Assembly: GCA_946183365.1 (NCBI GenBank)
Contig: CAMHAH010000008.1
Span: 1 to 64,000 of the forward strand
Direction of reading: 5' to 3'
Length of the DNA stretch: 64,000 bases
DNA from: an uncultured Clostridia bacterium
Lineage (GTDB): Bacteria; Bacillota; Clostridia; Oscillospirales; Acutalibacteraceae
The stretch's first letter is position 1. Each line of letters starts with the position of its first letter. Below are positions 5,786 through 36,180 of this stretch, piece after piece. A model generated the notes under the pieces. The model searched no databases, had not been told where the DNA came from, and saw only the letters and a program-made list of their open reading frames with translations. The position numbers and the translations under genes are program-made.

Positions 5786-6177
5786 TCACTTATCTATTCG
5801 GATGTTCACCAGATGGGCTATGGACGGTATAGTCTCTTTCTGCATAACGGTAGTGGGGCTGAGCAGAGCGCCGGTCGGAACAAAGAGGATGTTGCTGTAT
5901 CTGCCCTCTATCATAGAACTCAGTATATGACCGCACAGTACCGAAGCGCAGCACCCGCACCCCGAGCCGCCGGCGTGAACGTCCTGATCCTCACCGAAGA
6001 TCAAAACACCGCAGTCATTGTGCCGCGTGCCGAGATCTATGCCCTTCTCGAGAAGCAGATCTCTCAAAAGCCGTGTGCCGACCCGTCCCAGATCGCCTGT
6101 GAATATCATATCGTAATCATAAGGCTCGGTACCGCTGTCGCTCAAAAAGCCGTATATGGTGTCCGCCGCAGCAGGTG
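5786..6177 (-). pseudogene. spoVAD: spoVAD, 3' fragment (C-terminal third), separated from its 5' part
   Basis: Reading on the minus strand from the junction gives A-A-D-T-I-Y-G-F-L and then YDYDMIFTGDLGRVG, HNDCGVLIF, HAGGSGCGCCASV, GALLSPTTVMQKETIPSIAH. This is the C-terminal part of stage V sporulation protein AD, the thiolase-fold SpoVA subunit that binds dipicolinic acid for loading into spores. It has no plausible start codon or ribosome site of its own at the junction. The 5' part is at 35500-36180 in the same orientation, and joining the two at the shared 9 bp restores one 344-residue frame (Bacillus SpoVAD is about 338). It is intact downstream, including its terminator, so it has not decayed. 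Confidence 0.95.
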
Positions 6178-6199
6178 TTAGTGGTATACTGGGAACAAA
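6154..6199 (-). other. Attachment site at the spoVAD 3' fragment
   Basis: Core CAGCAGGTG on the plus strand at 6169-6177 is repeated at 35529-35537. The gene-side half site is 6154-6174 (outer ATATGG at 6154-6159, inner CCGC at 6163-6166). The element-side half site is 6175-6199 (outer GGAACAAA at 6192-6199). The presumed crossover dinucleotide is at 6174-6175. This is seen in the sequence; naming it an attachment site is inference from the split gene and the adjacent recombinase. Confidence 0.88.
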
Positions 6200-6223
6200 T
6201 CCGAGGGTAGCGGAGCAAAAACA

Positions 6224-6370
6224 AGGCTCCCTTTCCTAAGGGAGCTGTCAGCGTAAGCTGAATGAGGGTTGAAAACACTTTAGATATTTCTGCAAAGCAT
6301 TGCACAGAAATACAGTTCACAAAACAACCCTCCGGCACTTCGTGCCACCTCGCTTAGAAAAGGGAGGCAG
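6224..6370. repeat. MITE-like imperfect inverted repeat
   Basis: About 147 bp with long terminal inverted repeats: the left arm starts GGCTCCCTTT and ends GAGGGTTG, and the right arm starts CAACCCTCC and ends AAAAGGGAGGC. A second inner inverted repeat (TATTTCTG with CAGAAATA) lets the whole unit fold back. It has no coding capacity. Elements of this look are scattered in gut Firmicute genomes. It sits between the attachment site and the antitoxin-like gene. Confidence 0.7.
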
Positions 6371-6386
6371 ATACCATCTTGAATCC
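6366..6386 (+). repeat. Direct repeat, copy 1
   Basis: GGCAG-ATACCATCTTG-AATCC recurs at 8472-8493 with one inserted base and one substitution. The two copies flank the antitoxin-like gene and the recombinase gene. Confidence 0.55.
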
Positions 6387-6463
6387 AAAATCCGCTTGAG
6401 AGGAGGCGCCCTGTCCGCACCCTCGGACTGATGTAGAATACTTATTCAGAAAGGAACTGTACC

Positions 6464-6730
6464 ATGCCCGAAACAAAACTTACGATCAACTCTAAAACGC
6501 TGTTCCCGATCGAACACCTCAAAGACCAACTCAAAGAAGCGCTGAAAATCGCTCACGACCTCTCCCCCGCCATCATTACTCAGCATAACCGCCCAGCCTA
6601 CGCGATCGTTCGCTTGGATGAAGCGTATGAGACAGGTGAAAGCGACCTGCTCGCCGATCAGATCAGGGCAGCGCGGAACACGGCGAACGGAAAGATCACC
6701 TTTGAGCCGTATTGGTGGGAGAAGCCTTAG
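6464..6730 (+). CDS. Phd/YefM-like antitoxin, apparently orphan
   Basis: Codes for 88 residues. The middle segment HLKDQLKEALKIAHDLSPAI followed by ITQHNRPAYAIVRLDEAYE resembles the N-terminal DNA-binding part of Phd/YefM antitoxins, with its turn-strand pattern of a polar residue, Pro-x-Ala-x-hydrophobic. AAAGGA lies 8 nt before the ATG and a terminator follows at once, so no toxin gene is co-transcribed. It is the only gene on the plus strand of the element. In a circularised element, the outward promoter at 35380-35408 would point at this gene across the joined attachment site, though a folded MITE lies between. A role in controlling the recombinase is possible but unproven. Confidence 0.55.
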   Translation: MPETKLTINSKTLFPIEHLKDQLKEALKIAHDLSPAIITQHNRPAYAIVRLDEAYETGESDLLADQIRAARNTANGKITFEPYWWEKP

Positions 6731-6757
6731 CCCGCAAATCTATACTATTATGAGAAT

Positions 6758-6790
6758 GACCCTGCTGACCTTTCAGCAGGGTCGCTCTTT
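6758..6790 (+). terminator. Terminator between antitoxin-like gene and recombinase
   Basis: An 11-bp perfect stem GACCCTGCTGA/TCAGCAGGGTC (6758-6768 with 6773-6783) is followed by a short T tract. It separates convergent genes. Confidence 0.8.
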
Positions 6791-6801
6791 TGAATTTGTA
6801 T

Positions 6802-8433
6802 TCACGCTGATCGCTTTTGCGTATCAGGGAAAGCGTCACAGAAGTTAAAGGCAATATCCAGCGTACCGTCATTGTGTACCGCGATCCTGTCGATAAGCTC
6901 GGTCATTATCGGGCGGGTAAGGTTCTTGATATTGCCGTGCTTTTTGAAATGCTCGATAAAGTCGTTGGTCACGGCGGTATCGTCGTCCGCTTGACCGAGA
7001 GACGCTTTGAGCTTTTTGATGCTTTGGGTCAAGTCCCTCTGCGCCTGCTCATACTTCTCTTTGTTGATACGATACTGGTCGGCGTTGATTATGCCGTCCT
7101 TGAAGTCGGGATATAGATCCGCCATAATGCGAAGCACCTTCTCGAGCTTTTCTTCCTGTTTTTTGAGCTGTTTTTTCAGCCCTTCATCCGCCGCCGAGGA
7201 CTGCTTATCTTTCATCCGGAGAAGCACCTCATCGGCGTTCACCGCGGCGTCAACCATCTGTTGAATACAGTACAAAACGCAGTAATACAGGCGCTCGTAA
7301 CGAATGGTATGCGCGGCGCAGGCTGTCTTACACTTGCAGTGTGAGGAACAGCGGTAGTAGACGTAGGTCTTGTCGGGATTATGATTTGTCTTTTTGATGA
7401 GCGCGTGACCGCAGTCGGCGCATTTGAGCAATCCCGCGAATAGGTCGATATTTCCATTCCGGACGGCGCCTTTTGCCCCTGTTTGCAGCATTTTCTGCAC
7501 GCGGTCAAAATCGGCTTTGTCGATGATCGGATCGTGAGTCCCCTCTACCCGTATCCACTCGTCGGGCGTACAACTGCGTATCGCCTTGCTCTTATAGTTG
7601 ATCTTTTGGTTTTTGCCCTGCACCATCGTACCGATATACATCTCGTCGCGCAAGATACGGCGCACGGTCTTGTCACACCACAGGCTTGAATCACCGACGG
7701 TGCGGGCTTTGAAATTCAGCCCCTGCGTCCGCTTATAGGTAGAGGGATTCGGGATCCCGTGCTCGTTGAGATGGCGCACGATACCGCGGATGCCAACGCC
7801 GTTCAAGTAAAGACTGTAGATCATCCGCACGACCTCGGCGGCGGGCTCGTCGATCACCAGCTTGTGGCGGTCGGTCGGGTCTTTTTTGTAACCGAATTTC
7901 GCGAACGATCCGATAAAATCGCCCTTGCGGCGCTCCATATTCAGCGTTGAACGGATCGACTCTGAGTTTGCGGCTACATAGTATTCGTTGATCATGCCGC
8001 GCATAGAATTATTGAGAAAGTCGATCGCGACGCTCTGGCTTTTACCCGAGTCGATCAGATCATTGACAGCAATATAGCGAACTCGGAGCTTCGGGAATAT
8101 CTCGCCGATGTATCTGCCGCTCTCGCTGGCGTTACGCCCGAAACGAGAGCTGTCCTTGACGATGACGCAATTGACTATTCCCGCATAGACATCCGCTATC
8201 ATCCGCAAAAAGGCAGGGCGGTCAAAGGTCGCTCCGGAGTAGCCGTCATCGACGTAACAGTCACTAAATTCTATGTCAGGCTGAGAAGCGATATAGTTCT
8301 TTAGAATACGCTTCTGGTTCACGACCGAGTCGGACTCGGGCTTGTCGCCGTCCTCACGCGACAGGCGAATATAAAGAGCAGCCTTGTAGGTGCGTAAGAC
8401 CTGTGGAGACTGCTCAAAAGTATCATATCTCAT
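6802..8433 (-). CDS. Large serine recombinase (integrase/excisionase of the spoVAD element)
   Basis: Codes for 543 residues. The N-terminal resolvase domain holds the catalytic Ser25 in YIRLSRED and the conserved Arg in KDSSRFGRN. The recombinase domain follows (about 190-300, FGYKKD...IVRHLNEHGIPNP), then a zinc-ribbon (CADCGHAL ... CSSHCKCKTAC) and a coiled coil (KKQLKKQEEKLEKVLRI) near 400-500. This is the full architecture of large serine integrases and of SpoIVCA/SprA-type developmental recombinases. The start at 8433 is chosen because AGGAGG (8445-8440) is 6 nt upstream; an in-frame codon 17 residues earlier lacks a site. The gene lies about 0.6 kb from one attachment site, as expected for an enzyme that recombines its own ends. 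No disruption is seen. Confidence 0.96.
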   Translation of the reverse strand: MRYDTFEQSPQVLRTYKAALYIRLSREDGDKPESDSVVNQKRILKNYIASQPDIEFSDCYVDDGYSGATFDRPAFLRMIADVYAGIVNCVIVKDSSRFGRNASESGRYIGEIFPKLRVRYIAVNDLIDSGKSQSVAIDFLNNSMRGMINEYYVAANSESIRSTLNMERRKGDFIGSFAKFGYKKDPTDRHKLVIDEPAAEVVRMIYSLYLNGVGIRGIVRHLNEHGIPNPSTYKRTQGLNFKARTVGDSSLWCDKTVRRILRDEMYIGTMVQGKNQKINYKSKAIRSCTPDEWIRVEGTHDPIIDKADFDRVQKMLQTGAKGAVRNGNIDLFAGLLKCADCGHALIKKTNHNPDKTYVYYRCSSHCKCKTACAAHTIRYERLYYCVLYCIQQMVDAAVNADEVLLRMKDKQSSAADEGLKKQLKKQEEKLEKVLRIMADLYPDFKDGIINADQYRINKEKYEQAQRDLTQSIKKLKASLGQADDDTAVTNDFIEHFKKHGNIKNLTRPIMTELIDRIAVHNDGTLDIAFNFCDAFPDTQKRSA

Positions 8434-8471
8434 GGTATACCTCCTAATACTATTCCTTGATACTATCACGC

Positions 8472-8493
8472 GGCAGTATACCATCTTGGATCC
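8472..8493 (+). repeat. Direct repeat, copy 2, over the recombinase promoter candidate
   Basis: GGCAGT-ATACCATCTTG-GATCC matches 6366-6386 and covers the recombinase -10 candidate. Confidence 0.55.
8475..8483 (-). promoter_or_regulatory. Candidate extended -10 promoter for the recombinase
   Basis: TG-G-TATACT on the minus strand (8483-8475) is 42 bp upstream of the recombinase ATG. It has no good -35 box. It overlaps the 22-bp sequence that recurs at 6366-6386, so the repeat could be an operator. Tentative. Confidence 0.35.
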
Positions 8494-8547
8494 GTTTTAA
8501 GTTTATCACACTGACGCTCGGATAGCAACTGACAAATCATGGCAAAA

Positions 8548-8754
8548 TCAATTCAGCATCGTTTGGAACGCGTTCGCGAGCTGTGTACTGAGATCGCCGT
8601 TGTCACTGAAGCTCAGTCGAACGGTAATATCTCCGATCATCATAGTGTGGAAACTTGACACGGTCGATACGCTCTTTTCGTTATGTTCATTTTCCCCTTG
8701 TCTTAATGCCGAAGCGTTGTTAAATATTTGCTTGTTATTTTTTATGTCGTTCAT
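8548..8754 (-). CDS. Small protein beside the recombinase; TnpW-like or directionality-factor candidate
   Basis: Codes for 68 residues starting MNDIKNNKQIF. The start at 8754 is chosen because AGGTGG lies 4 nt upstream; a longer reading (from 8820) lacks a site. The C-terminal half (IGDITVRLSFSDNGDLSTQL) has the pattern of small TnpW-like proteins found beside serine recombinases of clostridial elements. Its position directly upstream of the recombinase, same strand and 114 bp away, is also where small recombination directionality factors can lie. Neither family is certain and no catalytic motif is visible. Confidence 0.55.
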   Translation of the reverse strand: MNDIKNNKQIFNNASALRQGENEHNEKSVSTVSSFHTMMIGDITVRLSFSDNGDLSTQLANAFQTMLN

Positions 8755-8877
8755 CGATCCACCTGCTTTGGGGTATTCGATATTAGTATCGGCAGGATTT
8801 TCCTGCTTAGTCATACGCAAGCGCCTTGATCGGTTGGTTTCTGATTCATACTAACCAATGACGACTTATATAATCAC

Positions 8878-8912
8878 AAAGCCGGTATCCGCTAATCCGG
8901 ATACCGGCTTTT
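8878..8912. terminator. Strong bidirectional terminator ending the polysaccharide/stator unit
   Basis: A 14-bp perfect stem AAAGCCGGTATCCG (8878-8891) pairs with CGGATACCGGCTTT (8898-8911). It stands just downstream of the REC-GGDEF-like gene on the minus strand and insulates the recombinase module from the long operon. Confidence 0.9.
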
Positions 8913-8975
8913 CAGCGCATAACGCTTTCTTTTGCTTCAATAGAAAAGACTGAAACCTGATCTTTGCCGATCTTC

Positions 8976-9806
8976 TTATCTGACGTAAACGACCGCGCCG
9001 TTCGCTGTACCGCAGGCGGCTTCTGCCGCTTTGAACCAGCTGTCAACAGGCGCTTTGAGGTCGACATTCTTGAAAACTCCCGCTTTTATGCGAACATTGC
9101 CGCTGCGCGAAAGCTCCCCCTGCATATGACCTATCAGCTTATCGTAATCATCCTGATGGCGGCAAAAAGCGTAGAAGGTGAAATCATCTGCGCGGCAGGC
9201 AAGGCCGTCGTCGTTGAAAACGATATCACTGAAGAGCCGTGCCGCTTCAGAGAGCATACCTTCATCAGCGCCGCTGAGCTTCAAAACCACCGCGTCCATA
9301 GAGCAGTTCAGACTCGGAAGCAGACGCTTGATATACGCGTCAAAGAAAACCTTGATATACAGCCCTGTCGCCCTGTCCTTTTCGATCGAGCGGATAAGGC
9401 GTTTTTCTTCGCTGAGCTCGATGATGCGCTCACAGCGCGCGAGGATGACCTCGGGCATACGGTAAGGCTTAGTGATAAAATCAGACGCGCCCATACGGAT
9501 GCTGCGCACCTCGGCGCTCTTTTCTGATGTCATTACTATTATCGGGATATTGCGAAGTTTCTCATCCGCCTTGCAGGCTTCGATCACCTGAAAGCCGCTC
9601 ATCTGCGGCATCAAAAGGTCAAGCAGGATCAATGAATACGGCTCCTCGGCAGCGTAAAGCGCCTCCATCGCCTCTTTACCGTTTGTAACAGATGTGACGT
9701 CATAATTCATAGACAGGATAGCCTGCAGCAGTTCTCGGTTGATCTTCTCATCATCGACCGCCAAAACTCTTCGTTTAAGACGGCCGTACTGTAGAAAATG
9801 GTTCAT
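8976..9806 (-). CDS. Response regulator with receiver domain and degenerate GGDEF-like domain
   Basis: Codes for 276 residues. The receiver domain (about 12-130) has the acidic pair in VLAVDDEKINRE, the phospho-acceptor Asp in LILLDLLMPQMSG, the Thr in VMTSEK and the Lys in FITKPYRM. After a linker, EKDRATGLYIKVFFDAYIK copies the start of diguanylate cyclase domains (usual D-x-LTGLxNRRxF), but the GGDEF signature is replaced by ADDFTFY, so cyclase activity is unlikely. It is the last gene of the unit that begins at 14763, 13 bp after the BY-kinase gene. It probably tunes polysaccharide output by protein contact. No cognate kinase is adjacent within the element. Confidence 0.85.
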   Translation of the reverse strand: MNHFLQYGRLKRRVLAVDDEKINRELLQAILSMNYDVTSVTNGKEAMEALYAAEEPYSLILLDLLMPQMSGFQVIEACKADEKLRNIPIIVMTSEKSAEVRSIRMGASDFITKPYRMPEVILARCERIIELSEEKRLIRSIEKDRATGLYIKVFFDAYIKRLLPSLNCSMDAVVLKLSGADEGMLSEAARLFSDIVFNDDGLACRADDFTFYAFCRHQDDYDKLIGHMQGELSRSGNVRIKAGVFKNVDLKAPVDSWFKAAEAACGTANGAVVYVR

Positions 9807-9819
9807 GATACGCTCCTTA

Positions 9820-11598
9820 TCAATTCAGATCATCATCGCTGATTTCATTATATTCGGGATATTCGTCAAGCCCGGGATACTCATCGGTACGCTGCTCGTT
9901 ATCCGTTACGGCCTTTCTTTTGTTATCTTCTTCCTTATCCTTGCGGGTCTTTTTCTCTTCGGCTTTTCTCTTCTTCTCTTCAGCCTTGAGCTTCTTTTCC
10001 TCAGCCTTTTTCTTCTTCTCTTCGTCCTTGAGCTTTCTCTTATCGATCTTGACCTTCTTACCGTCGGTCAAGCTCATATCTTCATCGGGCTCGATATCTA
10101 AGGAGAAATCCTGAGCCGTGAACCTTGGAGCAGCAGGCTTAGCTGAGCCTGACATTTTGTTTGCCTTCTCTCGTTTCTCACGGTAAGCGCTGCGCTTCTT
10201 CTCTTCCTTCTCAATGCGTTTCTTCTCACGCTTGATTGAATTAGCCAAACGTTTAGGCGTGTTGATGATAGTCTGGCGCCAGTTAACAACACAGTTGAAG
10301 ATCGCGCCTACGACAGGGATACCGGACTTTGCTATTCGCAGCATAGCGCGCTTGATATCGTCTACCTTAGCGTGGTCAAAGCGCACTATACACAGCACGG
10401 TATCCGTGATCTCATTCAACCGCAATACCTCGGCGTCGGTGCCGACGGGAGCGGTATCTATCAAAACATAATCGTAGCCTTCCATGACCCTTTTCAGCTG
10501 AATAAGGAGAGCGTCGTTGAAGTTCTCGGGATTCCTCTCGAGGACGCTCGGCAGCAGATCAAGACAGCCGTTGATGCGTGAAACGGCGTCGAGCTTATCC
10601 GCGTCGCCTCGATAGAGAGCGTTTAGGGTCTTTTCATAGGGCAGTTCACCGATAAACAGCGCGCCGAGCATCGGGTTTTGGAAGTTGCAGTCGATGAGCA
10701 GCGTCCTCTTGCCCAGACGAGCCAGCTGCAGAGCTATATCGGCGATCAGTCGTGTCTTGCCCTCGTCATGCATGGTAGAGGTGACATATAGTTTATTAAC
10801 GCCCGCGTTCTCAAGATGACCGAGAAGCAGATGGGCGGAGGACTTTATATCGTCCATGATTGGCAGTTCGGACTTAGATAGCGGCTTTTGGCGCGCGTAC
10901 TGTTTATCAAACGGTAAGGAACCTAAGGTATCGATACCGAAAATAGCTGTGATATCGTCTTCATTAATAAGCGTCGGAGCAAAGATCAACTTAAGTATAC
11001 AAAAGCCTATTCCTATAAAAAATCCGACGATAGCGGCGTATATCCATACCGAAAGGTTGATATTACCGCCTACGATAAATGTTGCTTTAGGCTCGTTGAT
11101 AACCGACAGGTAGCCCATCTTTAAGGTATCCTTCATCACAGATGATGTGACCTTGTTGATTGCGCTCACTATAGAGAGGCCTTCTTTTTCAGAACGCCAT
11201 AAAAGGGTGATCTCTATGATCTCGGTATCGCCGCTTCTCGACACGGTGAGGTTGCGCGTGATATCGTTGTCGGATACTCCCTGCAGCCCCAGGTCTGAGA
11301 TAACAGCGTTTATATTCCGCTGGCTTTTGATAACATAGATAGCGGATTCAGTCAGAGTGCGCGCGGCATTAAGGTTGGTCTCGGACGGAGTTGCGGTTTT
11401 ATACTCTTTGCCCGAGGTGATAACGGCAACAGAGGTACTGATCCTGTACTCTCTGGAAACCTCGCCGCGGATATATCCCGCGCCGATGACCGTAACTCCG
11501 ATTATCAAACCGACCACAGTGCAGATCAGCACTATCTTCCAGCCTTTGACGATATGAAAAAGAATATCGCTTTTTTTGAAAGTTCTTGATTTGTTCAT
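9820..11598 (-). CDS. Fused Wzz chain-length regulator and BY-type tyrosine kinase (Wzc/CpsCD-like)
   Basis: Codes for 592 residues. An N-terminal Wzz domain is bounded by membrane helices near 20-45 and 175-200. The kinase follows: a Walker A variant STMHDEGKTRL near 275, Walker A' LLIDCNFQNP, and Walker B YDYVLIDTAPVG. Most Firmicutes split these into two proteins (CpsC/CpsD); here they are one chain, as in Proteobacterial Wzc. The C-terminus is unusual: about 150 residues of Lys/Glu-rich, coiled-coil-like sequence ending in an acidic tail with only three tyrosines (DEYPGLDEYPEYNE). It likely controls chain length or export of the polysaccharide made by the upstream operon. It starts one base within the stop of the gene upstream. 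Confidence 0.9.
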   Translation of the reverse strand: MNKSRTFKKSDILFHIVKGWKIVLICTVVGLIIGVTVIGAGYIRGEVSREYRISTSVAVITSGKEYKTATPSETNLNAARTLTESAIYVIKSQRNINAVISDLGLQGVSDNDITRNLTVSRSGDTEIIEITLLWRSEKEGLSIVSAINKVTSSVMKDTLKMGYLSVINEPKATFIVGGNINLSVWIYAAIVGFFIGIGFCILKLIFAPTLINEDDITAIFGIDTLGSLPFDKQYARQKPLSKSELPIMDDIKSSAHLLLGHLENAGVNKLYVTSTMHDEGKTRLIADIALQLARLGKRTLLIDCNFQNPMLGALFIGELPYEKTLNALYRGDADKLDAVSRINGCLDLLPSVLERNPENFNDALLIQLKRVMEGYDYVLIDTAPVGTDAEVLRLNEITDTVLCIVRFDHAKVDDIKRAMLRIAKSGIPVVGAIFNCVVNWRQTIINTPKRLANSIKREKKRIEKEEKKRSAYREKREKANKMSGSAKPAAPRFTAQDFSLDIEPDEDMSLTDGKKVKIDKRKLKDEEKKKKAEEKKLKAEEKKRKAEEKKTRKDKEEDNKRKAVTDNEQRTDEYPGLDEYPEYNEISDDDLN

Positions 11599-13190
11599 CA
11601 GACTTTATTCCTTTTAATCCTGCGTATCAATGCTACGATAAGCGCAACGATTATTGATAACAGTACTGCCGCTCCGATAATCATAATGGTATCCCACAGC
11701 GTCCAATACTTTGTAGAGATTGTCTGTATACCGCCCTCATCCATAAGCTCAATGCTAACGCGTGAGGACGCGCGTCCGCCTGCTTCAAGCGTATATTTAC
11801 CTGGGTTGATGTTCTTGAGCTCACGGGCAACTCCTGTGCCCTCCCACTCATCAACCAGATTATTCTGACTGTCATAAACGCGTATCGTTGTGCCGGTTAT
11901 ATCGTTGCCAAACAGCATATCTTTGACAGAAGCAGACAATCTGATGATATACGCGGACATACTAAGCTCGGTTTTAGCCTTTCCGTTTATAAAACCGTTA
12001 TCATCTACAGTAAATGACGCTGTGTCTATCTTGGCTCGGTAGGGCTCCGGCAGAGCCTTGAGCTCCATTTTATATACAGCGTCCTTATCAAGATCGGTCA
12101 GAACGATCTTGCCGTTGCTGTCGGTAACAGCGTCCTCTCTGCCGGTAATCGCTATAGTTGCTCCGGCAATGGGCTCTTCGCTGTAATCGTCGATCAGCGC
12201 CAACTCAGCAATCGTCTTCTGACAATTGATCTCATATGTCTGCGGCTCATTCTCCGTATACTCAATTGTAACGCTCAAAGGAGTTTTATTGAGAGCATAA
12301 TATGCAGCGGCAGTTTTCTGAGTAACGGTATAATCACCGTAATACAGCTTCTTTGAGGCGCCCTTGCCGCCTTCACCGGTAGTGAATTCATCTACCTTTT
12401 CGCCCTTCTTATATCTTAAGGTACCGTCAAGGGTAATGATGTCATTTGCCGCATAGACCTCATATACGGTCCCCGTGACATTCACGCCGGTATCGGCGTC
12501 GATGTCATGAATATATATGATGCCTTTTGAAGGAGACATAGGCACCTGGACCCTGAACGGATCGTGCCAGTCGAGCGACTCGTCGATCTCAAAATTAACG
12601 TCTTCAGCAAAGGAATAGCCCTTAGGCGCCTTCAGATTATGAAGAGAATACCATCCGTTTGTTATCTTCTCGGGCAAATAGAAGGTTCCGTCCTCGGTGG
12701 TCTCAAACTGCTTGAACTCTATCTTCTCAGGATAGTAGGTGTGTAAGGTCTGTAAACCGCCCTTAGCGTCGCGGTCGGTATACAGTTCAAACAATATGCC
12801 CGCCTTCTTGATTACGTTTCCGGTCTCTTCATCGACAACCGTAACGAATACCGCCGTCTTATCATGACCGACGTCGTTATAGATGCCTTCATTGTCGTTA
12901 TCTCCGGGGTCATCTATGCCGCCACCGCCGCCTGCGCCGCTATCCTGGGGCGGACGATCATACAGCTCATCAGCTAAGTGGTTGCTGATATTGTTATTAT
13001 TGTTGTTATCGCTGTAATTATATTCATACTTATAATCTTCCAGATGTTCTTCTTTATTGAGCTGGGTCACATATAACAGCAGGAGCATCATGATAAGCAG
13101 AATAATAAGCAGCAAGCCTGACATTATATCGGTAAACGACTTCCAGTAGCTCTCGTCACCGTTTCTCTGTTTTTTTATAAGTTTCATCAC
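11598..13190 (-). CDS. MotB/ExbD-like membrane anchor fused to SpaA-like surface domains
   Basis: Codes for 530 residues. A short basic N-terminus is followed by SFTDIMSGLLLIILLIMMLL near 17-40, which copies the single stator helix of MotB/ExbD/ZorB with an Asp in place for proton binding. Then comes a low-complexity Asn/Gly stretch and three to four prealbumin-like domains of the SpaA/Cna-B kind (FVTVVDEETGNVIKKAG, GWYSLHNLKAPKGYSF, IYIHDIDADTGVNVTGTVYE). A second membrane helix (about 500-522) and a basic tail close it. Classic MotB ends in an OmpA peptidoglycan-binding domain, which is absent. It lies 40 bp downstream of a MotA/ExbB-like gene, so the pair probably forms an ion-driven complex that acts on the cell surface. 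Function unproven. Confidence 0.75.
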   Translation of the reverse strand: MMKLIKKQRNGDESYWKSFTDIMSGLLLIILLIMMLLLLYVTQLNKEEHLEDYKYEYNYSDNNNNNNISNHLADELYDRPPQDSGAGGGGGIDDPGDNDNEGIYNDVGHDKTAVFVTVVDEETGNVIKKAGILFELYTDRDAKGGLQTLHTYYPEKIEFKQFETTEDGTFYLPEKITNGWYSLHNLKAPKGYSFAEDVNFEIDESLDWHDPFRVQVPMSPSKGIIYIHDIDADTGVNVTGTVYEVYAANDIITLDGTLRYKKGEKVDEFTTGEGGKGASKKLYYGDYTVTQKTAAAYYALNKTPLSVTIEYTENEPQTYEINCQKTIAELALIDDYSEEPIAGATIAITGREDAVTDSNGKIVLTDLDKDAVYKMELKALPEPYRAKIDTASFTVDDNGFINGKAKTELSMSAYIIRLSASVKDMLFGNDITGTTIRVYDSQNNLVDEWEGTGVARELKNINPGKYTLEAGGRASSRVSIELMDEGGIQTISTKYWTLWDTIMIIGAAVLLSIIVALIVALIRRIKRNKV

Positions 13191-13230
13191 AACCCCCTTA
13201 TCAGCTCATTGAACGGGTCGGTCATCCGAA

Positions 13231-14763: not shown

Positions 14764-14806
14764 CTTTCCTCCTAAATCTGTACAAGGATATAAAATTCAA
14801 TACTTT

Positions 14807-14835
14807 ATTATACTAAAATAAACCACATTAGTCAA
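14807..14835 (-). promoter_or_regulatory. Promoter of the stator/BY-kinase/REC unit
   Basis: On the minus strand TTGACT (14835-14830), a 17-bp spacer and TATAAT (14812-14807) lie 44 bp upstream of the 14763 start. This gives the last four genes of the cluster their own sigma-A start. Confidence 0.82.
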
Positions 14836-14877
14836 TATAGATCTATTGTTATATAAAATGATAAAATATAGAATTTT

Positions 14878-16149: not shown

Positions 16150-16157
16150 CCTATACC

Positions 16158-17000: not shown

Positions 17001-17046
17001 GTGAATCTCCTACGATTTATTTCTTTTATGATGCGGTTCGCATACT

Positions 17047-19274: not shown

Positions 19275-19307
19275 TTCTATCCATCTCCTTTAGCGGTAGA
19301 TATATCA

Positions 19308-20423: not shown

Positions 20424-20429
20424 GATGGT

Positions 20430-23633: not shown

Positions 23634-23640
23634 ATTTCAA

Positions 23641-24582: not shown

Positions 24583-24607
24583 AATCGGTTTTCATCACTC
24601 CGTCTGT

Positions 24608-25741: not shown

Positions 25742-25745
25742 GTTG

Positions 25746-28258: not shown

Positions 28259-28283
28259 ACCGAATTCTCGCTTTATCGTTCAG

Positions 28284-30214: not shown

Positions 30215-31272
30215 TATTTCATTCTCTTTCTGATAATTTGCCATAAGCCGTCAAATGTATTTCGCGCCCACAGCATTGTTCGGTAGTAATGATCCATTCT
30301 TCGGGCTGAGCCCTTCTTATATAAACGGATAAACCGTTGATGAAGCTTATTATCAGGTGTTGTATTATTTACCCAAAGCGCAACATCTTCGCTGTCAAGA
30401 ATTTCACGGTAGAAAGCCATTCTCCTGCTTTTCGAAAAAATGTGTCCCCTGCGGTACATATTCGGAACACATGAAAAAATATAGGCGAGGTTTCCTTTTG
30501 AAAGCAAGGAAAACTGAGAGTCATAGATCCCGAGCCCCTGATATAAACAGTTGCGATAGTCAATAAACATCAGATTCTTCTCATACAAATCATTTCGAAA
30601 TCGGTTGGCGAGAGTGTCCTCTCCCCGGCGTACCCAGTGATAAAACGTCTCGTTTACCAGTGAAATGGATTTTGCTTTCATAAAGCACTCGCAGTTAAAG
30701 ATCAGATCTTCTCCCGGCTCTGTATGGGGAGCAAAAAGCGTTTGCGGTTGTTCTTGAAGCAGCCGTGTTCTGTACACCTTCGCCCATACCATATTGAATC
30801 CGCCTTTTTCTTCCAACTCCCTTACAGCGGATGCGGAGTCTGCGGACGGCATTTCCGTAAGCTGCGTTTTACGGATCTGCTGTTTTTGGGTATACTCCAC
30901 CTTGTAACCGTAAACAATAATATCGTCATTACTCTTGATGCGCTTCAGCACAGAGTCGGCATAACCCGCATCCACGGTATCGTCGGAATCCACAAAGGTC
31001 AAGTGTGTTCCTACGGCACTTTTGATTCCCGCATTTCTCGCGTTTGCCGGCCCCGCGTTTTTTTGATGGATCACTCGGATATTATCGAACCTTTCCGCGT
31101 ATCGGTCACACAAGACGGGGCTTGAGTCCGATGAGCCGTCATCCACCAGAATGATCTCATATTGATTTGTCTTACTGTCCAGAAGGCTGTCCAGACATTC
31201 CGAAAGGTACTTTTCAGTATTATATACGGGAACAATGATACTCAGCTTTATTTCTGTGCTGATAGCGATCAC
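30214..31272 (-). CDS. Family 2 glycosyltransferase
   Basis: Codes for 352 residues. GT-A core KLSIIVPVYNTEKYLSECLD, ILVDDGSSDSS, NAGPANARNAGIKS and FVDSDDTVD. The C-terminus is helical. It starts at a GTG, and the only nearby ribosome-site-like sequence (GGTGAG) is very close, so the exact start is uncertain and translation may depend on coupling to the gene upstream. Confidence 0.88.
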   Translation of the reverse strand: MIAISTEIKLSIIVPVYNTEKYLSECLDSLLDSKTNQYEIILVDDGSSDSSPVLCDRYAERFDNIRVIHQKNAGPANARNAGIKSAVGTHLTFVDSDDTVDAGYADSVLKRIKSNDDIIVYGYKVEYTQKQQIRKTQLTEMPSADSASAVRELEEKGGFNMVWAKVYRTRLLQEQPQTLFAPHTEPGEDLIFNCECFMKAKSISLVNETFYHWVRRGEDTLANRFRNDLYEKNLMFIDYRNCLYQGLGIYDSQFSLLSKGNLAYIFSCVPNMYRRGHIFSKSRRMAFYREILDSEDVALWVNNTTPDNKLHQRFIRLYKKGSARRMDHYYRTMLWARNTFDGLWQIIRKRMK

Positions 31273-31273
31273 C

Positions 31274-32392
31274 TCACCGGGCTAATATATTGCGGAAAAT
31301 ACGCAGATGCGTATCCGCCAGATTCTCATAGGTAAAGGGCTCAATAGTTTTGACGGCATTATTCATCATCTTCTCTCTGAACAGATCATTAAATAATACC
31401 TCACACATTTTTTTACGGAGCTGTTCGACATCTCCTACCTTGATGATAAAGCCGTTCTCTCCGTCTGTGATCAGTTCTATCGCAGCAACACAGCGATCGG
31501 TCGAAATAACGGGACAGCCCTTCGCCATCGCCTCGTTGATCACCAACCCCCATGTCTCGGTAGATGAAGGATGCACAAACATATCCGCGGCGCAAAAATA
31601 CTCGCTGAGCTTTTCGGGAAGCATAAAGTCCATTAGCACAATATTCTTTACGCCCGATTCTTTGATCAAACGCTCATAGCTTTCTTTCTCTTCTCCTCCG
31701 CCGATGATATAAAGGACACAATTATCCGGCATATCCTTCCACGCTTTGATCAGAACATCATATTTTTTTAACTGAATAAACCTTCCGACTGCCAACGCGA
31801 CCTTCTTGCCGCTCAAGTTCAGTTTTTCTTTATATTTCTTTTGAAGGGTACTCTTTTGGTTCGGAAGAATGATATCCTCTTTGTGCAGCGATGTAAACGG
31901 ATGAACAAAGACTTTGTCCTCCTCAGCGCCGCCCTTGATCACAGTCCTTTGCGCGATCTCAGAGCCGCAGAGAAAATACGCTCCCGAACGAAAGACCCAA
32001 CGCTTTACAGCATCCTTGATGATATCGGCTTTAGTCTTTTCTCTCCATATGTCGATACCGTCGATATTTATAAATACTTTTTTATGGTTTTTCAGGAGCG
32101 TGCTGATGGTTTTCAGTTTTATTAAAGACGAATAACCGTCAATGATATAAATATCAAATCCACCTGATAACGCTTCAGATAAAAAGCTCCTGGCAGGAAG
32201 CTCTCTTAATAATTTACTTCTCGCAGCCTTTTTTGTCGAAAAACAAGGTTCTTGAGAGTTCAGCCAATCCTTTTCTCTTGTTTTCTCATCTGAGGAAATA
32301 TAATAAGCAAATATATCGTTTTCTTTAGAGAGGGCGTTCATCCATTCGATTCTATAAGGAGACAGCAAACCGGTAAGATAAAAGATTTTCAA
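31274..32392 (-). CDS. Family 4 glycosyltransferase
   Basis: Codes for 372 residues. GT-B with N-terminal MKIFYLTGLLSPYRIEWMNA and donor domain ALAVGRFIQLKKYDVLIKAW, FVHPSSTETWGLVINEAMAK and GCPVISTDRC. It lies 26 bp after a GT2 gene. Confidence 0.92.
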   Translation of the reverse strand: MKIFYLTGLLSPYRIEWMNALSKENDIFAYYISSDEKTREKDWLNSQEPCFSTKKAARSKLLRELPARSFLSEALSGGFDIYIIDGYSSLIKLKTISTLLKNHKKVFINIDGIDIWREKTKADIIKDAVKRWVFRSGAYFLCGSEIAQRTVIKGGAEEDKVFVHPFTSLHKEDIILPNQKSTLQKKYKEKLNLSGKKVALAVGRFIQLKKYDVLIKAWKDMPDNCVLYIIGGGEEKESYERLIKESGVKNIVLMDFMLPEKLSEYFCAADMFVHPSSTETWGLVINEAMAKGCPVISTDRCVAAIELITDGENGFIIKVGDVEQLRKKMCEVLFNDLFREKMMNNAVKTIEPFTYENLADTHLRIFRNILAR

Positions 32393-32418
32393 CTACAGCC
32401 CTCCCTCAGGTGTTTCGA

Positions 32419-33360
32419 TCAATATTTTACAAATAGGGTATAAAGCGTTTTCTCTGATACAATTCCCAGAGTACAGAAAAGTTTTGATTTTGATGTCGGA
32501 ATCTTCATCGCCTCTTGATAAGAAAAGCCGATTTCCTCTCTCAAAGAACGAAACTCATCAAATGAAAGCAGCTTCGCAGAGGAATGAAGCACGCCTAACT
32601 TCCACCGGTCAATAAGGATCTCGCTGTCAAAAGGCAGATTCTCCAACGAACGGATCTCACGTGAGAAATTCTCAACACCGGAGAGCAGGTTTTCTTTTTT
32701 TGTCGCAGTCATTATTGAGCCTTCGTGAGGATAATAGTGGTAAAGCTGTGAATAATTGATAGATATCCTGTTTGATACATCAATTACTTTCCAGATAAAG
32801 GCTCTGTCTACAGAAAACTTTACCTGCTTATTGAAACGAAACTTATTCTTATCCAGCAAGCTTTTCTTCACAAGCATACACCAGCACGCTGTTAAGAATT
32901 TTTTCCTCGGCAACAGCAACCGCATCAATTCCTGCTTGTCGATCAGCTCACCGCCGAATGTATCTTCAAAATCGAATAAAGTCTTTGAGTCGACATACTT
33001 AAACGAAGAGAAAGAAGCATCTGTATCAAAACGCTTCGCATCATCCATCAGGACTTCCAGATATTTCGGATGAATAACATCGTCTGAATCGACAAACACA
33101 ATATACTCGCCCTCGGCAATATCCAAAGCCGCATTTCGAGCATCTGCAAGACCGCCGTTTTCTTTTTTTATCAGCTTGATAGTAATATCCGAAGTATCCT
33201 GCGTTGCTTCTTCAAATATAGCTTCAGTGTTATCTGTTGAGCCGTCATTGACCGCGATAAGTTCAAAATCTCTGAACGTCTGATTCAAAACAGACGTCAC
33301 GCTGTCTTTCACATAAGCGGATACATTATACATCGGGAAGATAACAGAAACCTTAGGCAT
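32419..33360 (-). CDS. Family 2 glycosyltransferase
   Basis: Codes for 313 residues. GT-A core VSVIFPMYNVSAYVKDSVTS, AVNDGSTDNT, ENGGLADARNAAL and FVDSDDVIHPKYL. It is the second or third gene from the main promoter. The codon use and base composition here look more AT-rich than in the flanking housekeeping genes (not computed), consistent with acquired DNA. Confidence 0.9.
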   Translation of the reverse strand: MPKVSVIFPMYNVSAYVKDSVTSVLNQTFRDFELIAVNDGSTDNTEAIFEEATQDTSDITIKLIKKENGGLADARNAALDIAEGEYIVFVDSDDVIHPKYLEVLMDDAKRFDTDASFSSFKYVDSKTLFDFEDTFGGELIDKQELMRLLLPRKKFLTACWCMLVKKSLLDKNKFRFNKQVKFSVDRAFIWKVIDVSNRISINYSQLYHYYPHEGSIMTATKKENLLSGVENFSREIRSLENLPFDSEILIDRWKLGVLHSSAKLLSFDEFRSLREEIGFSYQEAMKIPTSKSKLFCTLGIVSEKTLYTLFVKY

Positions 33361-33381
33361 ATCGTTTCTTCCTTTCCTTTA

Positions 33382-34608
33382 TTATTCTTTATATGTTGCG
33401 CTCTCAATACATTCCGTATATTTTTGAACGGATATTTCCTTTGACGCGTGCTCAACAGCATATTCTCTTGCGCTGTTCTTACCTAAGCTAAGAGTGTCTC
33501 CTGAAACCTCCTTTATTGCTTTTGCAAGCATATCAGCGTTCTCGGGTTCTACACAAATACCCGCGCCGGATTTATCCAGTACCTGAGCAAGCTCACTGTC
33601 GGTATCGAACGACGCGATGATGGGCGTATCGCACGCCATGATACTCCACAGCTTACTCGGGACAGCCGACTTGCCGACGCCCTTTTTGCAGGTGATCAGC
33701 GCTACGTCTCCGAGACTGTATACCTGAGCTGTTCTCTCAACAGGCAAAAGATCAAAAAGCTTAACGTTATCAAGCTCCAGCTCCTTCGCAAGAGCTTTTG
33801 CGCTGTCAAATTCTGTGCCGCCGCCGAAGATGACAAACGAAATATCACGGTTATTTTTTAGCATATCAGCCGCGCGCAGAATAATATCGGCTCCCTGAGA
33901 AGCGCCGAAATTACCGGCGTATACCACGTTAAAGCTGTTTTTGACTATATTATATTCCTCAAACAGAGGGTTTTTGTCTTTGGGCACAGGAGCTACCGCG
34001 TCGGTATCTATCCAGTTGGATACGGCGATGACCTTGTCGGCGTCAGCGCCCCGGGAGACGACCTTGTCCCTCATAGCTTCGGACAGAGTTATTATCTTAG
34101 AGGCGCTGCGGTATGTCTTTTTCTCCATCCTCTCGCCTAAACGGAATAAAACAGAATTCTCACTCGCAAGACCGCTGGTCACCAATGAATCGGGAAAGAG
34201 ATCCTGGATCGAATAGACGAACGGAACGCCGAGCTTCTTTGCCGCTCTGCCCGCCATACGTCCCTGGGTAGGCGGCGTGCTGACCGCGAATATAACGTCA
34301 GCGTCCCTGCGGCGTTTCGCGATGCTGTACTGCCTTAAGTTGCACCAAAGGTATCTTACTGCGCGCATCAGTGGGTTTTTGCTCTCGCGAGGCGCTGAGA
34401 AACGCTGTATCTCTACACCATTGTGAGTTTCTTTTTTTATGTTTTTATATCGCTTTATCTCATTATCTGAAAGCCCGCGCGTCGGCGTCGGACAAATGAC
34501 GCTGACCGAGTGTCCTCTCGCGATCAGCCCATCGATTATATCTCGCTCAAGGTGACTGAACGCGATATTCTCAGGATAATAATAAGCGTCAAGTAGCAAG
34601 ATGTTCAT
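33382..34608 (-). CDS. Family 4 glycosyltransferase, WcaI/WbuB-like
   Basis: Codes for 408 residues. It starts MNILLLDAYYYPENIAFSHL, with FSAPRESKNPLMRAVRYLWC, STPPTQGRMAGRAAKKLGVP and IQDLFPDSLVTSG, a pattern shared by WcaI/WbuB-type transferases of capsule and O-antigen clusters. The donor domain has AGNFGASQGADIILRAADML and SAVPSKLWSIMACDTPIIAS. It overlaps the acetyltransferase gene by 20 bp. Confidence 0.9.
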   Translation of the reverse strand: MNILLLDAYYYPENIAFSHLERDIIDGLIARGHSVSVICPTPTRGLSDNEIKRYKNIKKETHNGVEIQRFSAPRESKNPLMRAVRYLWCNLRQYSIAKRRRDADVIFAVSTPPTQGRMAGRAAKKLGVPFVYSIQDLFPDSLVTSGLASENSVLFRLGERMEKKTYRSASKIITLSEAMRDKVVSRGADADKVIAVSNWIDTDAVAPVPKDKNPLFEEYNIVKNSFNVVYAGNFGASQGADIILRAADMLKNNRDISFVIFGGGTEFDSAKALAKELELDNVKLFDLLPVERTAQVYSLGDVALITCKKGVGKSAVPSKLWSIMACDTPIIASFDTDSELAQVLDKSGAGICVEPENADMLAKAIKEVSGDTLSLGKNSAREYAVEHASKEISVQKYTECIESATYKE

Positions 34609-35215
34609 GTTTTACCCGATAATGATATTTATTCATCCTTCTGCCTTCAAAGGTAATGAACTCCTGAGAGAGTTTGAAGCCGTTCTTGTTATAAAATATA
34701 TTGGCGTCATCGTTATCATCCGCGTCGGTTTCAAGAGTAATATAATCAAAATGAGTAAAGTCGACGCGCTTCTTCATTTCTTCGATCAATTTAGTACCTA
34801 AACCGTGCTTCTGGTATTCGGGGGCGACGCCGATGGAGAACACCTTGACATATTCCTCCTCACGCGTATGAGTATACGGCATACTCAAAGCGGAGAACAT
34901 CTTAAAGAAGATAGAGGGCTTCTTTAAGAAAGAAAGAAAAGAGTACCAAACAAAGGGGAAGAAACGCCTCCACAGCATATATCTGTACACTCCTGTCGTG
35001 TCGTAGGAATACGCGATGAAGCCGACAGGCTTATCGTCGTTTAAAGCTACCAACAGTTCAGACTTCTTATGTGTTACAAAAGCCTTATAGAGTTGACGAA
35101 GAAATCCCGGATGCAGTGTGGACAGGAAAAAACCCTTAAACGATTGTTGATGCAGCTCTACTATCTTGTCGAGCAGCTCTTTTTCGCGGATATCAACGCT
35201 TCGAATAACAAGCAC
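34589..35215 (-). CDS. GNAT-family N-acetyltransferase
   Basis: Codes for 208 residues. The acetyl-CoA site is visible as VFSIGVAPEYQKHGLGTKLI (Q-x-x-G-x-G) near 125-145. Start at the GTG 35215 is preferred because GGGGGAG is 5 nt upstream; an in-frame ATG at 35290 would place translation only ~10 nt after the likely transcription start and lacks a site. First gene of the polysaccharide operon; it may acetylate an amino-sugar precursor, but protein or small-molecule substrates cannot be excluded. Confidence 0.82.
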   Translation of the reverse strand: MLVIRSVDIREKELLDKIVELHQQSFKGFFLSTLHPGFLRQLYKAFVTHKKSELLVALNDDKPVGFIAYSYDTTGVYRYMLWRRFFPFVWYSFLSFLKKPSIFFKMFSALSMPYTHTREEEYVKVFSIGVAPEYQKHGLGTKLIEEMKKRVDFTHFDYITLETDADDNDDANIFYNKNGFKLSQEFITFEGRRMNKYHYRVKHEHLAT

Positions 35216-35307
35216 GGTTACTCCCCCTTGGATATGTGCAATGTCTTGTGCGAATGATGAGGCAAGCTTTAAAAAGCCACACTCCCCCATTTAAATTTTT
35301 TATGCTA

Positions 35308-35336
35308 ATTATATCACTATGATGAACTTTTGTCAA
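35308..35336 (-). promoter_or_regulatory. Main promoter of the polysaccharide operon
   Basis: A perfect sigma-A match on the minus strand: TTGACA (35336-35331), 17-bp spacer, TATAAT (35313-35308). It reads inward into the acetyltransferase and glycosyltransferase genes. The leader to the chosen start is about 85 nt. Confidence 0.92.
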
Positions 35337-35379
35337 TTAATTACATTTTTTCTCTAAAATTTTATTTATCACTCACAAA

Positions 35380-35408
35380 TTGACGTGCAAAAAAACAAAT
35401 CCTATAAT
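35380..35408 (+). promoter_or_regulatory. Outward-facing promoter at the element edge
   Basis: On the plus strand TTGACG (35380-35385), 17 bp, TATAAT (35403-35408). It is back to back with the operon promoter and reads out of the element across the attachment site, antisense to the 5' part of spoVAD. Only a six-codon reading frame follows before the junction, so the product would be an RNA. Confidence 0.75.
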
Positions 35409-35499
35409 GAATAGAGGATAATAACAGGTTCAAAAAGATCAGCAAAGCAGATAGCATCAGACATTATGATGCCCATATATAAGTAATCGGTCGATAACT

Positions 35500-36180
35500 T
35501 TAAATATTTTTTGTGCCTATCTTGACAACAGCAGGTGCCATAGCGGCGCCCATATTGTTTTGATCGGTCACGGAAAGGTCGGTTATTCTGCCTATTCGGG
35601 CAGCGTTGATATACGGTGATCTCAGCCTGTCGGCTCGGACGTTGAGCTTTGATTTTGTATTCTCAACTACGCAGGCGCCTGCGCCCGTCACGGTCCACTG
35701 GGCTGTCGGCGGACGCTGAGAACCGTATTCGAGCGGGAACCTGTATTGCCGCTCCGCCGTACAATAATGCGAGGACGCGGCGCAAAGCGCTCGCTCAAAC
35801 GCTCCGCCTTCAACGGATATCGCCGACATTATCAGCCCCAGTCCCATAGTTGAGCACGCTCCGTAGATACCCGCGTACGGGATATTGAAGCCCCTCATAG
35901 CGAAGCTTGATGCGACGCACTGATTGAGCAGATCGCCGCAATATGCGATATCGATATCTTCAGCCTTTGTGTCTGCTTTCTCTATAGCCTTGTTGACAGC
36001 GATCACCATCAGCTCGCTCTCAGCCTTTTCAAAGGTATCCTTTCCGACGTAGCTGTCATATATTATGGTGTCAAAGCTCTCTCTTAACGGCCCTTCGGCT
36101 TCTTTCTTACCTGCGACCGAGGCATAAGAAGTTATCACGGGCTTAGCTTCAAAATATATATTGTCTTTTTCTCTGTACAT
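35500..36180 (-). pseudogene. spoVAD: spoVAD, 5' fragment (N-terminal two thirds), truncated by the element
   Basis: Encodes 226 residues: YGACSTMGLGL, AASSHYCTAERQYRFP and TVTGAGACVV are the signature stretches of SpoVAD, ending at NNMGAAMAPA. The next codons (35528 to 35500) come from the element and give a foreign tail V-V-K-I-G-T-K-N-I and a stop. The C-terminal third is at 5786-6177. A good start is seen (AAAGGAGA 7 nt before ATG). The frame is intact up to the junction. No spoVAC or spoVAE is adjacent, so this may be a solitary copy. As it stands, the product would lack the C-terminal part of the thiolase fold and is probably non-functional until rejoined. Confidence 0.95.
35510..35555 (-). 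other. Attachment site at the spoVAD 5' fragment
   Basis: Core CAGCAGGTG (plus strand, 35529-35537). Gene-side half 35535-35555 has outer CCATAT (35550-35555) and inner GCGG (35543-35546), the inverse of the half site at 6154-6174. Element-side half 35510-35534 has outer TTTGTGCC (35510-35517), the inverse of GGAACAAA at 6192-6199. The crossover dinucleotide is at 35534-35535. Confidence 0.88.

What the first reader, a model, noticed from the sequence alone, without database searches (positions are those of the whole stretch)
5786..36180. spoVAD is split by a 29.4-kb element and can be restored exactly in frame
The C-terminal third of SpoVAD (5786-6177) and the N-terminal two thirds (35500-36180) lie on the same strand, separated by 29,360 bp. 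The same 9 bp (CACCTGCTG, minus strand) occurs at both junctions. Joining at it gives 1035 nt = 344 codons plus stop, reading NNMGAAMAPAAADTI across the junction, which is the pattern of intact SpoVAD. Neither half shows decay. Known relatives of this arrangement are skin in sigK and SP-beta in spsM; an element in spoVAD with polysaccharide cargo is not one I know.
Basis: partly seen in the sequence, partly recalled or inferred. Interest (0 to 1): 0.95.

Follow-up and report, generated by a model that had tools for sequence, protein, structure and literature searches.

The report
Mobile sugar-coat island inside spoVAD
In this gut Ruminococcus genome a 29-kb island that encodes a predicted recombinase and sugar-coat genes sits inside the only copy of spoVAD, a gene that likely has to work in the future spore itself, so the island would have to be cut out exactly, and probably put back later, for normal spores to form.

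Summary
The only spoVAD found in this 98.5%-complete genome is split by 29,360 bp with the same 9 bp (CACCTGCTG) at both joints; joining there gives a 344-codon SpoVAD. In 43 of 150 genomes of the genus that hold the gene, the match breaks at the same codons, and in 26 I read a junction into element DNA. Two recombinase/att families hit the same codons; all 12 genomes with a close recombinase relative are split. A sister species has the intact gene at the same locus. Detached C-halves stay open in 20 of 21 genomes, with dN/dS like intact genes. Polysaccharide cargo recurs.

New: spoVAD is a forespore gene in C. difficile, whereas known intervening elements sit almost always in mother-cell genes. 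In 16 of 16 elements with both ends read, circularisation would complete a sigma-A-type promoter across attP that attL and attR lack. A second forespore-type gene, ssp, is also split in this genome, and sigG in a relative.

Not shown: excision, its timing, a directionality factor, re-integration. Best reading: an excisable, likely re-integrating island (0.55). Main rival: a mobile island without developmental control (0.30).

The parts
35529..36180 (-). N-terminal part of spoVAD up to and including the core (codons 1-217); the ORF runs on to 35500 through 9 element codons (VVKIGTKNI) and stops
   Evidence: PF07451 model 3-208
5786..6177 (-). C-terminal part of spoVAD from the core to the stop
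   Evidence: PF07451 model 201-328
35529..35537 (-). 9-bp core CACCTGCTG in attL
6169..6177 (-). 9-bp core CACCTGCTG in attR
35511..35528 (-). element arm of attL (TTGTCAAGATAGGCACA); on the plus strand it holds TTGACA at 35522-35527, the -35-like box of the attP promoter
6178..6198 (-). element arm of attR (GTTCCCAGTATACCACTAA); on the plus strand it holds TATACT at 6185-6190, the -10-like box of the attP promoter
6178..35528 (.). the integrated element between the two cores (29,360 bp counting one core)
   Evidence: GC 0.465 against 0.516 and 0.496 in the flanks
6464..6730 (+). orf88, small Phd/YefM-like protein, first gene downstream of the attP promoter in the circle; family found at this place in 8 of 13 family I elements examined
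   Evidence: (PF02604 E 3.7e-5, 23.9 bits, below the 29.8-bit cut-off)
6802..8433 (-). large serine recombinase, 543 aa from the ATG with AGGAGG (the open frame extends to 8484)
8474..8482 (-). GGTATACTG upstream of the recombinase start, same word as in the attR arm; possible self-control site (inferred)
   Evidence: 3 in the window, 0.36 expected, 0 of 100 shuffles reach 3
8976..35290 (-). cargo: response regulator, Wzz/ParA-like, SpaA-fold surface protein, MotA-EAL, Wzt/Wzm-type ABC exporter, 14 glycosyltransferases, YdjC, GNAT
   Evidence: 25 minus-strand ORFs of the element scanned, recombinase included
4828..5673 (+). nfo (deoxyribonuclease IV), chromosomal neighbour downstream of spoVAD
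36362..38734 (-). dockerin-type protein gene, chromosomal neighbour upstream of spoVAD

Best explanation
A 29.4-kb island that encodes a large serine recombinase and a polysaccharide gene cluster is integrated in the middle of the only spoVAD found in this Ruminococcus genome, and it is predicted to be excised exactly by that recombinase so that an intact spoVAD is restored in cells that go on to make spores. Shown: the split, the 9-bp core, the attL and attR arms, the open joined frame, the recombinase gene, the recurrence at the same codons across the genus, intact alleles in relatives, and constraint on the detached C-half. Inferred: the recombinase with an unidentified directionality factor recombines attL with attR. 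Because SpoVAD is a forespore protein in the models, excision has to reach the chromosome that the spore inherits, unlike skin or SP-beta. The circle then likely re-enters attB by recombinase alone; the sigma-A-type promoter that only attP completes (TTGACA-N17-TATACT) would mark the circular state by switching on orf88, or, in four relatives, also the recombinase on the same strand, and would shut off on re-integration.
For: Exact 9-bp core and intact joined frame. Same break in 43 of 150 genomes; junction into element DNA read in 26 (20, 6 more). Two att families at the same codons, each with its own recombinase group. 12 of 12 genomes with a recombinase at least 64% identical have split spoVAD, 10 of 12 with recombinase and a half on one contig; in the 60-genome genus sample 5 of 5 against 14 of 60 split, p 0.0004. 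Intact allele at the same locus in G017. C-halves open in 20 of 21; C-half dN/dS 0.021-0.091 in 13 split-split pairs, 0.020-0.111 in 10 intact-intact pairs. In G198 the N-half contig ends on the last core base and another contig starts with the same 55 bases and carries the joined gene. attP promoter in 16 of 16 elements, best match elsewhere (attL, attR, attB) 6-9 of 12 against 11-12. Spo0A, SpoIVA, SpoVAC, SpoVAEb and a sigma-G-like gene are present in the genome.
Against: No reads or RNA: excision, timing, directionality factor and re-integration are unseen. The recombinase promoter looks vegetative by eye. Recombinase tree and SpoVAD tree do not agree (Mantel r 0.12, p 0.18, 11 genomes), so insertions may be young and constraint may predate them. 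N-half dN/dS is higher in split-split pairs (0.060-0.219, 11 pairs) than in intact pairs (0.016-0.110, 11 pairs); one split-intact pair (G005-G018) has C-half dN/dS 0.148. G048 has a truncated C-half. The genome's ssp is interrupted as well, which also fits loss of sporulation. The sigma-G-like box was found in 9 of 52 spoVAD upstreams only, not in G000 by the stricter pattern. The sigma-G match of the genome (381.7 bits) is below the NCBIfam cut-off of 457, as in all 59 relatives. In G198 no contig with the other branch was found in the bin. No circle was found in viral contigs.
Confidence: 0.55

Rival explanations
1. An ordinary mobile polysaccharide island that uses a conserved gene, dispensable in growth, as its landing site. 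It leaves and enters at random; occupied cells cannot complete normal spores, and spoVAD is kept intact by selection on the empty fraction of the population. There is no developmental control.
For: Recombinase and host trees disagree; gains and losses recur (at least 4 changes for family I, 5 for family II); the recombinase promoter looks vegetative by eye; no directionality factor under sporulation control was found; other conserved spore genes are targets too.
Against: 13 of 16 rows of the family I clade are split, a high load if each split blocks sporulation; in G012-G099, G103-G105 and G105-G106 recombinase dS and C-half dS are about equal, which fits long co-residence, while the C-half stayed constrained.
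Confidence: 0.3
2. A permanently broken gene in a lineage that is losing sporulation; the island landed where it does no harm.
For: spoVAD and ssp are both interrupted in this genome and in G012; higher N-half dN/dS in the split species; G048 with a truncated C-half.
Against: C-halves open in 20 of 21 and under strong constraint; other spore genes present and open; 150 of 161 genomes of the genus keep SpoVAD.
Confidence: 0.11
3. The two halves are made as separate polypeptides that work together, and no excision is needed.
For: Both halves are open and constrained.
Against: At the attR joint the sequence upstream of the C-half differs between families and carries no conserved start or ribosome site that I could see; intact genes encode one chain.
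Confidence: 0.03
4. Assembly artefact at 6.17 or 35.53 kb.
For: Most of the genomes compared are metagenome bins, and some contigs end at the core.
Against: Same codons, same arms and an adjacent recombinase in many assemblies, with both halves on one contig in G000, G012 and G105.
Confidence: 0.01

Closest known systems
gin element in gerE of Bacillus cereus ATCC 10987 (PMC5595907, passages seen)
   Same: Non-prophage island of similar size (28.6 kb) in a sporulation gene, insertion site of 9 nt (138-146), serine recombinase, restorable gene.
   Different: gin has three serine recombinases and a known excision factor (GirX), shown to rearrange during sporulation, in a mother-cell gene. Here one recombinase, no factor known, excision untested, forespore gene, polysaccharide cargo, circle-completed promoter.
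skin (sigK), SP-beta (spsM), vfbin (spoVFB), spoVR and kamA elements (PMC6957869 and PMC10747680, passages seen)
   Same: Serine recombinase, gene halves on one strand, precise rejoining at a short core.
   Different: They lie in mother-cell genes and several are prophages or prophage remnants; excision there does not touch the spore's genome.
Tn4451/Tn4453 with TnpX (title in a reference list seen; the rest recalled)
   Same: Large serine recombinase; the circle forms a promoter; family II has a TnpV-like small protein (below Pfam's cut-off).
   Different: Fixed target codons in spoVAD and polysaccharide cargo; in this window the promoter points at orf88, not at the recombinase.
SCC elements with Ccr recombinases, including capsule-bearing ones (recalled)
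   Same: Recombinase plus cargo island, no phage or conjugation family among the ORFs scanned; weak CcrB similarity (118 bits).
   Different: The CcrB cut-off of 900 bits is not met; SCC leaves its target gene working (recalled).

Membership tests
sporulation-gene intervening elements (skin / SP-beta / gin kind) | splits a sporulation gene, halves on one strand, short shared core, rejoinable in frame | tested here: met
sporulation-gene intervening elements (skin / SP-beta / gin kind) | carries a serine recombinase gene near an attachment site | tested here: met
sporulation-gene intervening elements (skin / SP-beta / gin kind) | carries a directionality factor under sporulation control | tested here: inconclusive
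   small conserved ORFs found, function unknown
sporulation-gene intervening elements (skin / SP-beta / gin kind) | excision during sporulation restores a working gene | not testable with these tools
   no reads or cultures; one assembly forks at the core with a joined branch
sporulation-gene intervening elements (skin / SP-beta / gin kind) | host gene belongs to the mother cell (common to almost all, not a strict rule) | tested here: inconclusive
   spoVAD is in the sigma-G regulon in C. difficile (PMC3789822); sigma-G-like box in 9 of 52 upstreams here
Tn4451-type (TnpX) elements | circle completes a promoter across the joint | tested here: met
   sequence prediction only, 16 of 16 elements
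Tn4451-type (TnpX) elements | that promoter drives the recombinase gene | tested here: not met
   in this window it points at orf88; in G035, G102, G104 and G106 the recombinase is on that strand
SCC (Ccr) elements | recombinase passes the CcrA, CcrB or CcrC family cut-off | tested here: not met
   52 of 700, 118.1 of 900, 88.9 of 900 bits
prophage or conjugative element | phage structural or conjugation genes | tested here: not met
   none among 25 minus-strand ORFs of the element; smaller and nested ORFs were not all scanned

The most novel reading that the evidence does not exclude
Germ-line DNA rearrangement in spore formers. Serine-recombinase islands colonise genes of the future spore itself (spoVAD, ssp, sigG), are cut out of the chromosome that the spore inherits, travel as circles inside the spore, and are put back after germination with the help of a promoter that exists only while the island is circular. 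Sporulation thus becomes a checkpoint at which swappable surface-polysaccharide islands leave and re-enter the genome.
Probability: 0.28. Interest if true: 0.93.

Novelty: new variant of a known kind. Interest (0 to 1): 0.82.

Why it matters
Known intervening elements persist because excision is confined to the mother cell, which dies. An element in a forespore gene breaks that logic: excision must be inherited and followed by re-integration, or sporulation must be given up. The two att families, the promoter completed only in the circle and the intact sister allele make this testable by junction PCR. It also means that broken-looking spore genes in gut Ruminococcus bins should not be read as loss of sporulation before att cores are checked, and that one codon site serves as a port for surface-polysaccharide islands across a genus.

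Tried and rejected
Prophage or conjugative element: no such family among the 25 ORFs scanned. Assembly artefact: rejected by recurrence. Pure vertical descent of the element: rejected, trees disagree, though some pairs fit co-residence. G174 as a genome holding both joined and split alleles: rejected, its extra C-half is 82% alike over 84 bp only, so probably another species. G014 as a joined/split pair: unclear, two variants 96.8% alike over 284 bp, one contig starting inside the core. Circular form in viral contigs: 0 matches for family I attP and attR and for family II attP (exact patterns), and no recombinase relative there.

How counts were made: 43 of 150 (counted by hand) is 38 genomes whose N match ends at model position 204-217 plus 5 with a C match alone (G004, G027, G049, G175, G178; the range of G178 was not listed and is judged by its E-value). 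G024 and G198 are among the 38 although their contigs simply end at the core. 7 other partial matches (G006, G011, G057, G151, G156, G158, G177) were not counted as split; the other 100 genomes span the joint. Some genomes carry two handles (G098=G012, G101=G035, G107=G023; G099=G194, G100=G200, G102=G117, G103=G143, G104=G118, G105=G168, G106=G148, by identical coordinates) and are counted once. The 32 dN/dS pairs were picked by hand. In the tree, G004, G027 and G049 entered with the C-half alone and G021, G024, G042 and G048 with the N-half alone; 27 of 30 order-level relatives fetched or listed outside the genus were left out or not used. The attP promoter was noticed by eye before it was scored, and the arms of one family are related, so the 16 are not 16 independent tests. 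Searches list only the first 25 families each.

Literature: searches showed no report of an element inside spoVAD, ssp or sigG; most subscription papers and all preprints are outside that library. Seen as passages only: PMC5595907, PMC10747680, PMC6957869, PMC3789822, PMC13023037, PMC5814915, PMC6907783, PMC10083194, PMC13059800; all others as listing with the start of the abstract. PMC6907783 describes spoVA genes as cargo of islands, not as their target.
Full report
Observation. The window lies in a 2.84-Mb, 48-contig genome (98.5% complete). SpoVAD (PF07451) is found there only as two pieces on the minus strand, model 3-208 and 201-328. They join at exactly nine shared bases, CACCTGCTG, into a 344-residue SpoVAD without stops, which matches solved SpoVAD (3lma, E 4.5e-92). 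In the present state the N-half runs nine codons into the element (VVKIGTKNI) and stops.

Element. Between the joints lie a large serine recombinase (6802-8433; Resolvase, Recombinase, zinc ribbon, DUF4368), a small plus-strand ORF (orf88, 6464-6730) and a surface-polysaccharide cluster with 14 glycosyltransferases, an ABC exporter, a Wzz/ParA-like protein and a SpaA-fold protein. No phage structural or conjugation family turned up among the 25 minus-strand ORFs scanned. GC is 0.465 against 0.516 and 0.496 in the flanks.

Recurrence. Of 161 genomes of the genus, 150 have SpoVAD; in 43 the match breaks at the same place, 7 are otherwise partial and 100 span the joint (counted by hand). I read a junction into element DNA in 26 genomes: 20, and G137, G164, G175, G182, G184 and G191. 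The arms fall into two families at the same codons. Family I, this window's, has GTTCCCAGTATACC on the attR side and TGTCAAG...GGAACA on the attL side. Family II has TTTATGGTT...CTTGACA on the attR side and TATAATAGAACCATA on the attL side. Each pair has outer inverted repeats, as attP sites of serine integrases do (recalled). The recombinases match this division: relatives at least 64% identical occur in 12 different genomes (this one included), all 12 split, and 10 of 12 carry the recombinase on the contig of a spoVAD half. Recombinases at 44-45% occur in G005 and G045 (family II) and as a second copy in G049. The named relatives are Ruminococcus or uncultured Clostridia bins, among them goat-ileum and reindeer ones. 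Elements read from end to end measure about 8 kb (G105), 29 kb (this window) and 74 kb (G012). Polysaccharide families lead the list for G012 (61 ORFs) and recur among 85 ORFs of other family I elements and 35 ORFs of family II.

Empty allele. G017, sister of G012 in the SpoVAD tree, has an uninterrupted spoVAD between a dockerin gene and nfo, in the order and orientation of the window. Inside the family I clade 13 of 16 rows are split and 3 intact; the tree needs at least 4 changes for family I and 5 for family II. G048 carries a family I attL outside that clade.

Constraint. The detached C-half is open to its stop in 20 of 21 split genomes read, and in an orphan contig binned with G174; G048 is truncated. 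C-half dN/dS is 0.021-0.091 in 13 split-split pairs, 0.013-0.148 in 7 split-intact pairs and 0.020-0.111 in 10 intact-intact pairs (two more pairs saturated; many dS values near saturation). G012 (split) and G017 (intact) differ there by 1 of 124 residues. Against this, N-half dN/dS is higher in split-split pairs (0.060-0.219) than in intact pairs (0.016-0.110), and the recombinase tree does not follow the SpoVAD tree (Mantel r 0.12, p 0.18), so some constraint may predate young insertions. In some pairs recombinase dS is about that of the C-half (G012-G099, G103-G105, G105-G106), in others much lower (G012-G049, G012-G100): both co-residence and lateral transfer occur.

Coexistence. In G198 the N-half contig ends on the last base of the core, and another contig begins with the same 55 bases and carries the joined gene. 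55 is a usual top k of SPAdes (recalled), so the assembly graph probably forked where attB and attL part. No contig with the other branch was found in the bin, and strain mixture cannot be told from excision.

Promoter completed by the circle. Rebuilding attP from the two arms gives TTGACA-N17-TATACT in 11 of 11 family I elements (strand opposite to spoVAD) and TTGACA-N17-TATAAT in 5 of 5 family II elements (spoVAD strand). The boxes lie on opposite arms, and shuffled arms score as well in 0 or 1 of 500. The best match in attL, attR and attB is 6-9 of 12 against 11-12 in attP (14 elements, G137 and G164 left out). In this window the boxes are 35522-35527 and 6185-6190 on the plus strand. Next downstream in the circle is orf88 in 8 of 13 family I elements examined and a protein of 61-66 aa in 4 of 7 family II elements; the pieces of G023 and G164 were short. 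orf88 resembles Phd/YefM, and three of three of the family II proteins tested resemble TnpV, all below Pfam's cut-offs. In G035, G102, G104 and G106 the recombinase follows on that strand. The arm word GGTATACTG recurs upstream of the recombinase start. A promoter made by the circle is known for Tn4451 (title only), so this is a known device in a new place.

Why the gene matters. In C. [quoted passage not shown] PMC6957869 states that almost all intervening elements are in mother-cell genes and that this keeps the element in the spore's genome. An element in spoVAD cannot use that route. A sigma-G-like box was found upstream of 9 of 52 spoVAD genes of the genus against 0.43 in shuffles.

Other forespore-type genes. 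The only SASP gene found in this genome is interrupted too: its N part runs into another tail on contig C9, and its last 12 residues follow in frame on a second type of serine recombinase on contig C38. G012 and G017 show the same with both parts on one contig, about 28 and 25 kb apart. ssp is split at another codon in G015, with 12 shared bases, and in G033 only the C part was seen; each C part has a recombinase beside it. G075, of another family, has both parts and a recombinase beside the C part, but I saw no shared core there. sigG is split in G060 with 11 shared bases and a recombinase on the N-part contig; in G024 its N part runs into other sequence.

Mechanism. Most likely (0.55): recombinase plus an unknown factor excises the island exactly in cells that sporulate, restoring spoVAD, and the circle re-integrates by recombinase alone. 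Main rival (0.30): a mobile island that uses spoVAD as a landing site without developmental control. Permanent loss of sporulation is less likely (0.11). Excision, timing, directionality factor and re-integration are all untested.

Noticed in passing
own genome C9:20585-20728 (L174) and C38 about 8797-10491 (L203:3798-5492): The only SASP gene found is also interrupted: the N part gains a 33-residue in-frame tail, and the last 12 SASP residues are fused in frame to the end of a second type of serine recombinase. Similar N tails occur in G012, G017 and G018.
   Followed up: partly
C38 end (L201 from about 1440 to the contig end): A 98-bp unit holding the SASP tail and a terminator-like hairpin is repeated head to tail up to the end of the contig.
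   Followed up: no
G015 (L170, L171), G033 (L177), G075 (L172, L173): ssp interrupted at an earlier codon (EVGV|NLKQ) by another recombinase family; in G075 no shared core was seen.
   Followed up: partly
G060 (L180, L181) and G024 (L182): sigG is interrupted at TYAVPMII|GEIRRYL in G060; in G024 the N part runs into other sequence at nearly the same codons.
   Followed up: partly
upstream of spoVAD in many genomes of the genus: A strong dyad (CTCCCTTTTGC ... GCAAAAGGGAG) is centred on a -10-like GATAATA just before the start codon, its right arm forming the ribosome site.
   Followed up: no
G000 C17, C8, C13: spoVAC, spoVAD and spoVAEb lie at three separate loci in this genus, whereas several other families of the order keep them adjacent.
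   Followed up: no
G105 (L127:10535-11371) and G104 (L125:3690-4526): nfo, normally just downstream of spoVAD, lies between attL and the recombinase in G105 and beside the N-half in G104, as if moved with the element.
   Followed up: no
G014, G020, G069, G079, G081: Extra fragments of only the last part of SpoVAC/SpoVAEb (model about 71-117), three in a row in G081.
   Followed up: no
G057 (L115): spoVAD is whole across the joint, but its first third is replaced by a membrane-transporter-like start; true fusion or chimeric contig.
   Followed up: no
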